DNA from: Lachnospiraceae bacterium
Lineage (GTDB): Bacteria > Bacillota > Clostridia > Lachnospirales > Lachnospiraceae
DNA: 33,014 nt
NCBI GenBank assembly: GCA_024693455.1
Contig: JAILKW010000129.1
Coordinates: 1 to 33,014 of the forward strand
Direction of reading: 5' to 3'
The stretch's first letter is position 1. Every line of letters starts with the position of its first letter. This document shows, piece by piece, positions 1 to 3,135 of this stretch. The notes beneath the pieces are model-generated. The model was not told where the DNA came from. It saw nothing but the letters and a program-made list of their open reading frames with translations, and did not search any database. The position numbers and the translations under genes are program-made.

Positions 1-1488
1 ATTAACCCTATAAACGGGGCAAAGGTACCTATTTGGTTGTCTGATTACGTACTTGCTGATTACGGAACCGGAGCTATCATGTGTGTTCCTGCTCATGATG
101 ACAGAGATTTTGCTTTTGCCAAGAAATTCGATATACCCATCATCCAGGTTATTGCCAAGGACGGTGTGGAAATAGAAGATATGCAGGAAGCTTATACCGA
201 TGCAGTGGGAACTATGATCAATTCCGGTGACTGGAACGGTATGGAGTCTGCAGAGCTTAAGGAAAAAGCACCTGAAATGATCGAAAAGATGGGTGCGGGA
301 AAGAAGACAACCAACTACAAGCTTCGTGACTGGGTATTTTCAAGACAAAGATATTGGGGTGAGCCTATTCCCATTGTTCATTGCGAAAAATGCGGTCCTG
401 TAGCTGTTCCCGAAGAAGAGCTTCCTTTGCTTCTTCCCGATGTTGAATCATATCAACCTACAGGAACAGGAGAGAGTCCCCTTGCAGACATTACGGATTG
501 GGTTAACACAACCTGTCCCTGCTGCGGCGGACCTGCAAAAAGAGAAACTAACACAATGCCTCAGTGGGCCGGTTCTTCATGGTATTTCCTTCGTTATGTT
601 GACAACAAAAACGACAATGAGCTTGTATCAAAAGAAAAAGCAGACAAGTATCTTCCGGTAGATATGTACATCGGAGGAGTAGAGCATGCGGTACTTCACC
701 TTCTTTATGCAAGATTCTACACCAAGTTTTTGTATGATATCGGAGTAGTTGATTTTGAAGAGCCCTTCAAAAAGCTTTTCAACCAGGGAATGATAACCGG
801 TAAAAACGGTATCAAGATGTCAAAATCCAAAGGAAACGTTGTTTCTCCGGATGATCTAGTACGTGATTACGGTTGCGATTCACTTAGGATTTATGAGCTC
901 TTTGTAGGACCGCCCGAGCTTGACAGTGAGTGGGACGACAGAGGAATAGACGGTGTTTATCGTTTCCTTTCAAGAGTTTGGAGACTGTTTTCGGACAATG
1001 CAGAAAAAGACGTTCCCGAGACTAAGGAGCTTATTAAAGTACGTAATCAGATGATCCGTGATATCACAAATCGTCTTGAAGGATTTTCACTTAACACTGT
1101 AATATCCGGATTTATGGAGTATACCAATAAGCTTGTTGATATATCCAAAAAGACCGGTATCGACAAAGAAACCCTTCATACATTCACACTTCTTCTTGCA
1201 CCTTTTGCTCCTCATATTGCAGAAGAGCTGCACGAAGCCATAGGATGTGAAGGCTCAGTATTTACAGAGACCTGGCCCGATTATGATGAAGCTCTTTGCG
1301 TTGAGGATGAAATAGAAGTTGCGGTTCAGATCAACGGAAAGCTTAAGGAAGTTGTTGCGCTCTCAAAGGATGTATCCAAAGAGGATGCAATTTCAGCAGC
1401 AAAAGCGGCGCTTGGGGATAAACTGAGCGGAAACATAGTAAAAGAGATTTATGTGCCCGGCAAGATAATTAATATAGTTGTTAAATAA
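1..1488 (+). CDS. leuS: Leucyl-tRNA synthetase, C-terminal part (5' truncated by window edge)
   Basis: Reading frame is open from base 1 (INPINGAKVPIWLSDYVLADYGTGAIMCVPAHDDRDFAFA...); KMSKS signature (GIKMSKSKGNVVSPDD), editing-domain and anticodon-binding-domain sequence typical of LeuRS. Confidence 0.97.
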   Translation: MNPINGAKVPIWLSDYVLADYGTGAIMCVPAHDDRDFAFAKKFDIPIIQVIAKDGVEIEDMQEAYTDAVGTMINSGDWNGMESAELKEKAPEMIEKMGAGKKTTNYKLRDWVFSRQRYWGEPIPIVHCEKCGPVAVPEEELPLLLPDVESYQPTGTGESPLADITDWVNTTCPCCGGPAKRETNTMPQWAGSSWYFLRYVDNKNDNELVSKEKADKYLPVDMYIGGVEHAVLHLLYARFYTKFLYDIGVVDFEEPFKKLFNQGMITGKNGIKMSKSKGNVVSPDDLVRDYGCDSLRIYELFVGPPELDSEWDDRGIDGVYRFLSRVWRLFSDNAEKDVPETKELIKVRNQMIRDITNRLEGFSLNTVISGFMEYTNKLVDISKKTGIDKETLHTFTLLLAPFAPHIAEELHEAIGCEGSVFTETWPDYDEALCVEDEIEVAVQINGKLKEVVALSKDVSKEDAISAAKAALGDKLSGNIVKEIYVPGKIINIVVK

Positions 1489-1505
1489 TTATCTTTATAT
1501 GGCAA

Positions 1506-1910
1506 GGCCGCATTGTCCGGGGATGAATCACCGCTCGCTCTATAACACGAGCTCGCTTTAGATTATCCCCGTACAATGCTTCAAAATATTGCATGAATTA
1601 TTATATTAAAATGTTTGATCTGCTTGCCGGACAATAAATGGGAAGAGAGTGCAGGGCCGCATTGCCCGAGACTTTAGATTATCCCCGTACAATGCTTCGA
1701 AATATTGTATGAATTATTATATTAAAATGTTTGATCTGCTTGCCGGATAATAAATGGGAAGAGAGTGCAAGGCCGCATTGCCCGGGACTTTAGATTATCC
1801 CCGTACAATGCTTCGAAATAATGCATGATTTATTATAATAAAATGCCTGATCTGCTTGTCGGGCAATAAATGGAAAGAGAGTGCAAGGCCGCATTACTCG
1901 CTTTTAAGAC
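1506..1910. repeat. Tandem ~116-bp intergenic repeat: three full units (starting ~1506, ~1655, ~1771) plus a short partial unit (~1887-1900)
   Basis: Motif GGCCGCATTG(C/T)CCG...TTTAGATTATCCCCGTACAATGCTTC(G/A)AAAT...TGATCTGCTTG(C/T)CGG...CAATAAATGG(G/A)AAGAGAGTGCA recurs at spacings of 149, 116 and 116 bp; units 2 and 3 are ~90% identical by eye; unit 1 carries 33 extra bp. Confidence 0.93.
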
Positions 1911-1926: not shown

Positions 1927-3135
1927 ATGGGAAAGATAGAAATGAAGACTCCGCTTGTTGAGATGGACGGAGATGAAATGACCAGAGTTCTTTGGCAGAT
2001 AATAAAGGATGAGCTCATTTTGCCGTTTGTGGATTTAAAAAGCGAGTATTATGATCTCGGACTTAAGAAACGAGATGAGACCGATGATGAGATAACGAAA
2101 CAGTCGGCCGAAGCAACAAAGAAATACGGAGTGGCTGTAAAGTGTGCCACTATCACCCCTAATGCCGCAAGAGTGGAGGAATATGACCTTAAAAGAATGT
2201 ATCCTTCACCCAACGGAACGATAAGAGCTATCCTGGACGGAACGGTTTTTAGGGCTCCGATACTTGTTAAAGGGATTGAGCCCTGTGTTAAAAACTGGAA
2301 AAAGCCAATAACTATTGCCCGTCATGCATACGGAGACGTTTATAAAGCATCCGAGATGAAGATTCCCGGAGCAGGCAAAGTTGAACTGGTTTACACAGCG
2401 GATGACGGCAGTGAGCAAAGAGTCCTTGTACATGAATTTAAAGGTGCGGGAGTTGTTCAGGGACAACATAATCTGACAGCTTCCATAGAAAGTTTTGCCA
2501 GAAGTTGTTTTGAATACGCATTGGCCGAAAAACAGGATCTTTGGTTTGCCACAAAGGATACTATTTCAAAACAGTACGATCATACCTTCAAAGATATTTT
2601 CAGTGAGATTTTTGAAGCAGAATACAAAGATAAATTCGATGCTGCCGGAATAGAGTATTTCTATACCTTGATCGATGATGCGGTTGCAAGAGTAATGAAG
2701 TCCGAAGGCGGATTTATCTGGGCATGTAAGAATTATGACGGAGATGTTATGAGTGACATGCTTTCTTCGGCTTTCGGATCACTTGCAATGATGACATCAG
2801 TGCTTGTTTCTCCTCAGGGATATTATGAGTATGAAGCTGCACACGGAACCGTTCAGCGTCATTATTACAAGCATCTTAAAGGTGAAGAAACTTCAACCAA
2901 TTCGGTTGCTACAATATTTGCATGGAGCGGTGCTTTCAGAAAAAGGGCACAGCTTGATGAGCTTCCCGAACTCGAAAAATATGCAAACGCTCTTGAGAAA
3001 GCGACAATTGCTACTATAGAAAATGGGAAAATGACCGGAGATCTTGCCCGTATTACCACAATGAGTGACCCTGTTGTTTTAAACAGCAAAGACTTCATTG
3101 TAGCAATAAGAGAAGAACTTGAAAAAATTCTTTAA
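1927..3135 (+). CDS. icd: NADP-dependent isocitrate dehydrogenase (eukaryotic-like type II family)
   Basis: [34 protein letters not shown]..., [32 protein letters not shown] at 1927 is preceded by AAGGAGAGAG ribosome-binding site; the ORF-track start at 1870 lies inside the upstream repeat. Confidence 0.95.

What the first reader, a model, noticed from the sequence alone, without database searches (positions are those of the whole stretch)
1506..1910. 116-bp tandem structured repeat filling the leuS-icd intergenic region
Seen directly: three units plus a short remnant occupy almost the whole ~440-bp intergenic gap, while the rest of the window has almost no intergenic DNA. Each unit carries inverted arms: ATTGYCCG near the start and CGG(A/G)(C/T)AAT near the end. 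In unit 1 the arms are ATTGTCCGG / CCGGACAAT and in unit 3 ATTGCCCG / CGGGCAAT, so both sides of one base pair differ while pairing is kept. That hints at selection on a folded RNA or DNA structure. Unit 2 is intermediate, with one wobble and one mismatch. With only three copies, coincidence is possible.
Basis: partly seen in the sequence, partly recalled or inferred. Interest (0 to 1): 0.62.

Follow-up and report, generated by a model that had tools for sequence, protein, structure and literature searches.

The report
Dispersed RNA hairpin between operon genes
The gap between the leuS and icd genes holds one intact and two damaged tandem copies of a small hairpin that also sits behind other genes of this gut or rumen bacterium, always with the same tip but with a stem whose two strands are rewritten together at each place, and related species put a different hairpin of the same design at the same spots, which suggests a common but uncatalogued way of structuring messenger RNA between genes.

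Summary
The repeat is real: units at 1502-1650, 1651-1766 and 1767-1882, remnant 1883-1902. Unit 1 is the key copy. The cap occurs 11 times at 8 places in the host genome and in none of 12 congeners searched. Its flanking arms differ completely from place to place, yet each left arm pairs with its own right arm (rank 1 of 5040 permutations). Congeners carry an unrelated ~145-nt hairpin ("cap-2", up to 24 BLAST matches per genome, absent from Rfam) with the same logic: 34 of 42 pairs show compensatory double changes, arms are locus-specific (0 of 20000 permutations in each of four genomes), and G-U exceeds A-C 48:16, pointing to selection on the sense-strand RNA. Two congeners have cap-2 in the same leuS-icd gap; others have it at parE-parC and tgt-yajC, where the host has cap-1. 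Best reading: a non-autonomous, dispersed intercistronic RNA hairpin, working like ERIC/NEMIS/REP elements but not shown to belong to any. How a constant cap comes to sit on a local stem is unexplained.

The parts
1..1488 (+). leuS (leucyl-tRNA synthetase), 3' part; upstream gene
   Evidence: open frame; orthologous C-terminus found in congeners
1502..1650 (+). Unit 1, the only intact copy of the element in the window (149 nt)
1510..1579 (+). Intact hairpin: arm GCATTGT, C/T mismatch, CGGGGAT/ATCCCCG, cap, arm ACAATGC; starts 22 nt after the leuS stop
   Evidence: MFE -31.5 kcal/mol, z -6.8; arm pairing tested
1526..1564 (+). Conserved cap-1 (AATCACCGCTCGCTC..ACGAGCTCGCTTTAGATT); 11 copies in the host genome
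1612..1633 (+).
   Evidence: weak here, z -0.2
1651..1766 (+). Unit 2: tandem copy with 33 nt of the cap deleted
   Evidence: local hairpin z -1.7
1767..1882 (+). Unit 3: tandem copy with the same deletion; hairpins 1775-1811 and 1844-1865 still fold
   Evidence: z -3.7 and -4.1
1883..1902 (+). Remnant of a fourth unit (GCAAGGCCGCATT...), just before the icd ribosome-binding site
   Evidence: family D2
1927..3135 (+). icd (isocitrate dehydrogenase), downstream gene
   Evidence: relatives up to 91% identical

Best explanation
The leuS-icd gap holds an array of a species-specific, dispersed, non-autonomous hairpin element. The intact form is a constant ~37-nt cap on a stem whose sequence differs at every locus but stays self-complementary. 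It lies just downstream of stop codons, in the direction of transcription, between or behind co-directional genes. After arriving it was amplified in tandem at some loci; here two copies lost the cap. Most likely mechanism (inferred): it is transcribed as part of the polycistronic mRNA and acts as an intercistronic RNA hairpin that changes the stability or processing of the upstream versus the downstream message, in the way reported for ERIC and NEMIS RNA. Shown here: dispersal, structure, locus-specific arm pairing, position and orientation, absence from congeners, and replacement by another hairpin family (cap-2) at the same sites in congeners, with G-U over A-C bias in cap-2. Not shown: transcription, nuclease cleavage, any effect on leuS or icd, or the means of mobility.
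For: Dispersal: BLAST E 4.5e-16 to 4e-10 at further copies; 11 copies with CM R1, E <= 5e-14, none in 12 congeners at E < 0.5. Structure: 5 of 15 core pairs with double changes, 94.7% of cells paired against 27-37% when slid (small and related sample). Locus-specific arms: own-left x own-right duplex energy -23.7 against -12.9 kcal/mol, rank 1 of 5040 permutations over 7 independent loci; outer arms alone also rank 1. Position: cap-1 in sense, directly after the stop of leuS, parE, tgt, a ClC channel gene and a GH32 gene, 5 of 5 where the upstream gene is known. Same sites in congeners: cap-2 in leuS-icd of G009 and G007, parE-parC of G010 and tgt-yajC of G007. Cap-2: 34 of 42 pairs with compensatory changes, outer arms 0 of 20000 permutations in G010, G009, G007 and G002, sense in 17 of 20 classifiable loci, G-U:A-C 48:16, p 8e-5, and 19 pairs against 3. 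No terminator signature in the window region.
Against: No transcript data. Cap-1 and cap-2 are not shown to be homologous (R2 finds nothing beyond E 0.01-0.7 self-complementary stretches in the cap-1 loci), so transferring RNA-level selection from cap-2 to the window element is by analogy. Eleven copies from one MAG is a small sample. Two cap-1 copies (subfamily 2, C102 and C202:504) are not in sense with their neighbours. Symmetric DNA functions fit the palindrome too. The G-U test counts cells, not independent events.
Confidence: 0.6

Rival explanations
1. Mobile DNA hairpin: the cap is a tiny non-autonomous transposable element, moved in trans through a folded single-stranded DNA form, that lands in the loop of pre-existing locus palindromes; stems are target sequence and any RNA effect is secondary.
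For: Constant cap on unrelated arms at seven independent loci; absent from congeners; leuS-icd of other species has unrelated hairpins (G001/G004/G005 and XBD2001), so palindromes at such sites pre-exist in the group.
Against: No Y1 transposase (PF01797) in the 80%-complete genome; no target duplication seen; the G-U bias in cap-2 favours RNA-level selection; orthologous gaps in congeners show no empty palindrome with the window's arms.
Confidence: 0.2
2. Ordinary local tandem duplication of intergenic DNA with a chance palindrome; no element.
For: The 116-nt unit itself matches nothing else.
Against: The cap inside unit 1 recurs at seven other places with E down to 1e-16, and arm complementarity is locus by locus.
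Confidence: 0.02
3. Intrinsic transcription terminator or attenuator between leuS and icd.
For: Stable hairpin right after a stop codon; one copy (C169, second unit) is followed by a T run.
Against: No T tract at most copies; terminator scan finds none in 1400-2000; the element also lies inside parE-parC, where both genes are needed.
Confidence: 0.08
4. Protein- or nucleoid-binding DNA palindrome (gyrase- or HU-type site, as in BIMEs).
For: Palindromes with conserved centre in intergenic DNA; REP/BIME precedent (own knowledge).
Against: The conserved internal loops are strand-asymmetric and kept in all 11 copies; orientation bias; the G-U asymmetry in cap-2 should not exist for a strand-symmetric DNA site.
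Confidence: 0.08

Closest known systems
ERIC / IRU (127 bp, enterobacteria)
   Same: Intergenic imperfect palindromes, co-transcribed with neighbours; orientation-dependent effect on upstream mRNA stability (PMC2229807, citing De Gregorio 2005)
   Different: ERIC is described as one consensus sequence; here only the tip is constant and the stem is locus-specific; host is Lachnospiraceae; no sequence relation
NEMIS / Correia elements (Neisseria)
   Same: Small dispersed hairpins beside genes; RNA stem-loops proposed as RNase III targets (PMC2229807)
   Different: NEMIS have constant 24-bp terminal inverted repeats; the outer arms here are the variable part
REP / BIME and REPINs
   Same: Short palindromes in intercistronic DNA, sometimes in tandem mosaics
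   Different: REPs are constant 20-40-bp palindromes tied to RAYT (Y1) transposases (PMC2817692, PMC3733652); no PF01797 match in this genome
Stem-loop repeat families surveyed in 40 bacterial genomes (Cozzuto 2008, PMC2267715)
   Same: General class of repeated, foldable intergenic sequences
   Different: The places read do not discuss locus-specific stems, and no Lachnospiraceae appear in the part of its species table that was shown

Membership tests
REP / REPIN | RAYT / Y1 transposase (PF01797) in the genome | tested here: not met
   0 matches (genome 80.6% complete)
REP / REPIN | Constant 20-40-nt palindrome with a GTAG/CGTC tag | tested here: not met
   arms variable; no such tag noted by eye in the 11 copies
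ERIC | Full-length conserved imperfect palindrome of about 127 bp | tested here: not met
   only ~37-52 nt are conserved between loci
ERIC | Co-transcription and effect on upstream mRNA | not testable with these tools
   no transcript data; position and orientation fit
NEMIS / MITE | Constant terminal inverted repeats and TA target-site duplication | tested here: not met
   ends are locus-specific; no consistent duplication seen by eye
Known structured RNA (Rfam 15) | Match to a covariance model | tested here: not met
   cap-1; cap-2 (only neighbouring T-box and S10 leaders match)
Intrinsic terminator | G+C stem followed by a T tract | tested here: not met
   0 found in 1400-2000
Cap-2 family (this report) | Three-way junction with GC-GNRA-GC stem, match to CM R2 | tested here: not met
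   the window element scores 11 bits, E 0.7, antisense; same design, not shown to be the same family

The most novel reading that the evidence does not exclude
Lachnospiraceae carry a previously undescribed class of mobile, transcribed intercistronic RNA hairpins in which a constant, recognised cap is grafted onto, or builds, a locus-specific stem. Species replace one cap family by another at the same operon gaps (leuS-icd, parE-parC, tgt-yajC), so the hairpin at those gaps is what selection keeps, not its sequence.
Probability: 0.35. Interest if true: 0.85.

Novelty: new variant of a known kind. Interest (0 to 1): 0.66.

Why it matters
Known bacterial interspersed palindromes keep their ends constant, because the ends are what a transposase reads. 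Here the tip is constant and the ends are local, yet paired, in two unrelated families. That needs either a mobility mechanism that reads a hairpin tip, or strong selection for a stem of any sequence between operon genes. Cap-2 is also a strongly covarying structure (34 of 42 pairs) that Rfam lacks, present in up to 24 BLAST matches per genome in this genus and found at E 2e-9 or better in at least three loci outside it, including the isolate Bilifractor porci, so it can be tested in culture.

Tried and rejected
Whole 136-nt unit as query in the own genome and 98 relatives: only the array itself. Rfam at gathering and E 5: none. IMG/VR pattern, plasmid and phage BLAST: none. Strict cap-1 pattern in 397 Lachnospiraceae: own genome only. 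XBD2001 leuS-icd hairpin as a dispersed family: single copy. G001/G004/G005 leuS-icd hairpin: one place per genome, not dispersed. G003 hairpins: dispersed, but arms constant and loop variable, a REP-like design, set aside. Cap-1 and cap-2 as one family: not supported. Systematic scan of leuS-icd gaps in 80 icd loci: only three recognisable cases, too few. Coding reading (a frame ...DESPLALSNELAIDYP... crosses the cap): noticed, not pursued because the frame ends or shifts at several copies. Paper searches found nothing on this in Lachnospiraceae.

Full report
What is there. The window is contig C151 of a 2.56-Mb, 350-contig, 80.6% complete genome whose nearest icd relatives are Lachnospiraceae MAGs. 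Between leuS (stop at 1488) and icd (start 1927) lie three tandem units and a remnant. Units 2 and 3 are 116 nt; unit 1 is 149 nt because it keeps 33 nt that the others lost. Units 2 and 3 retain the 3' half of the lost part (CTTTAGATTATCCCCG), which is also the conserved 3' half of the cap at other loci, so they are deletion derivatives rather than empty sites (inference).

The unit is private, the cap is not. A 136-nt query from units 2-3 finds only the array in the own genome and 98 relatives. A query from unit 1 finds the inner hairpin at C252, C169 (twice), C217, C275, C133 (twice), C202 (twice) and C102. A covariance model of the core finds exactly 11 copies in this genome, E 2.6e-20 to 4.6e-14, and nothing convincing in 12 congeners (best E 0.79). 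A strict pattern finds none in 396 other Lachnospiraceae, and IMG/VR, plasmids and phages are empty. Several copies lie near contig ends, so more may be missing from the assembly.

Constant tip, local stem. Aligned, the copies share AATCACCGCTCGCTC-loop-ACGAGCTCGCTATAGATT nearly invariantly, including strand-asymmetric internal loops. Outside it the sequences diverge completely: GCATTGT/ACAATGC in the window, GCAAAAG/CTTTTGC at C252, GCCTCCG/CGGAGGC at C169, CAGCCG/CGGCTG at C275, CCCCTTG/CAAGGGG at C133. Among seven independent loci each left arm pairs with its own right arm much better than with the others (mean -23.7 against -12.9 kcal/mol; rank 1 of 5040 permutations).

Context. Cap-1 follows the stop codon of leuS, parE, tgt, a ClC channel gene and a GH32 gene by roughly 10-40 nt in the sense direction. 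There is no terminator signature in the window. The 5' neighbour of the hairpin often reads TGCAAG(A/G)CC, and the unit is repeated in tandem at C169, C133 and C275 too, so local amplification is a habit of the element.

Congeners. A chimeric query of the C-termini of five neighbouring proteins located the orthologous gaps in 12 congeners. None has cap-1. Instead G010 has a long hairpin in parE-parC and G007 one in tgt-yajC with the same tip and different arms. This second family, cap-2, is dispersed: 24 BLAST matches in G010, 18 in G009, 10 in G007, 9 in G002. In G009 and G007 a copy sits in leuS-icd, the very gap of the finding (L212/L236 and L270). Hence unrelated hairpins of one design occupy the same operon gap in different species of one genus.

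Cap-2 as RNA. 42 copies align over 154 columns; RNAalifold gives 42 pairs, 34 with compensatory double changes, and a three-way junction with a GC-GNRA-GC stem whose closing pair also covaries. Its arms are locus-specific by the same permutation test in four genomes (0 of 20000 for the outer arms). On fixed alignment columns G-U outnumbers A-C 48 to 16 (p 8e-5; 19 pairs against 3). On the complementary strand this ratio would be reversed, so the selected molecule is the sense RNA; cells are not independent, so the p-value is optimistic. 17 of 20 classifiable copies are in sense with their neighbours (corrected with protein starts seen). CM R2 also finds copies outside the genus: L129 twice, L059 (Bilifractor porci) and L022, E 2e-21 to 1.6e-9, and a divergent one in G008, E 2e-9. 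Rfam has no match. Cap-1 and cap-2 are not shown to be homologous.

How it probably works. Of the known elements, ERIC and NEMIS work most like it: small repeats transcribed with neighbouring genes, reported or proposed to alter mRNA stability through their hairpins (PMC2229807, read). By analogy the window array is most likely an intercistronic mRNA structure that sets leuS and icd message levels apart; this last step is inference. Mobility is inferred from dispersal and patchy presence; no Y1 transposase was found. Exchange among copies is suggested by G009 and G007 leuS-icd, which share flanks and outermost pairs but have different inner arms and caps, and by one mosaic right arm (L235 against L238).

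Limits. One incomplete host genome; unnamed congener genomes; cap-1 evidence rests on eleven copies; the RNA-level argument is made on cap-2 and carried over by similarity of design and location; no expression data.

Noticed in passing
L175, L185, L198-L227, L228-L272 (congeners G002, G007, G009, G010): Cap-2: ~145-nt covarying three-way-junction hairpin with GNRA loop and locus-specific arms, up to 24 BLAST matches per genome, absent from Rfam; also L129, L059 (Bilifractor porci), L022 and L141.
   Followed up: yes
L171 and L179, parE-parC gap of G007 and G011: Another style of intercistronic hairpin with short iterated arms (GAGTTATGAG.. / ..CTCATAACTC; GTGAGAG.. / ..ACCTCGCACCTC).
   Followed up: no
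L273-L277 (G003): Dispersed palindromes with constant arms TTTCCGTACCA / TGGTACGGAAA and a variable loop, tandem in L274 and L275; REP-like.
   Followed up: partly
L264 and L265: A cap-2 hairpin lies between a T-box leader and thrS.
   Followed up: no
L149:87-244 (C169) and L150:1-700 (C217): Cap-1 hairpin upstream of a small peptide gene (MYNKPKVIELDNLAEGIF..., looks like a RiPP precursor) on two contigs; on C169 the gene is followed by its own inverted copy, perhaps an assembly palindrome.
   Followed up: no
L148:4800-5174 (C252): Left half-arms (GCAAAAGCCGGGGATC) repeated about six times before, and right half-arms (CGGCTTTTGC) three to four times after, one intact cap-1 hairpin.
   Followed up: no
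L192, L195, L197 (leuS-icd of G004, G005, G001): A further unrelated hairpin (ATGCCCGGCCTTCTTTATAGCCCATTCGGCCGTAAGGA..GGGCAT) occupies the same leuS-icd gap, single copy per genome.
   Followed up: partly
L229 against L177, L228 against L184: Two orthologous sites where the left arm and most of the cap-2 hairpin are deleted but the right arm is kept.
   Followed up: no
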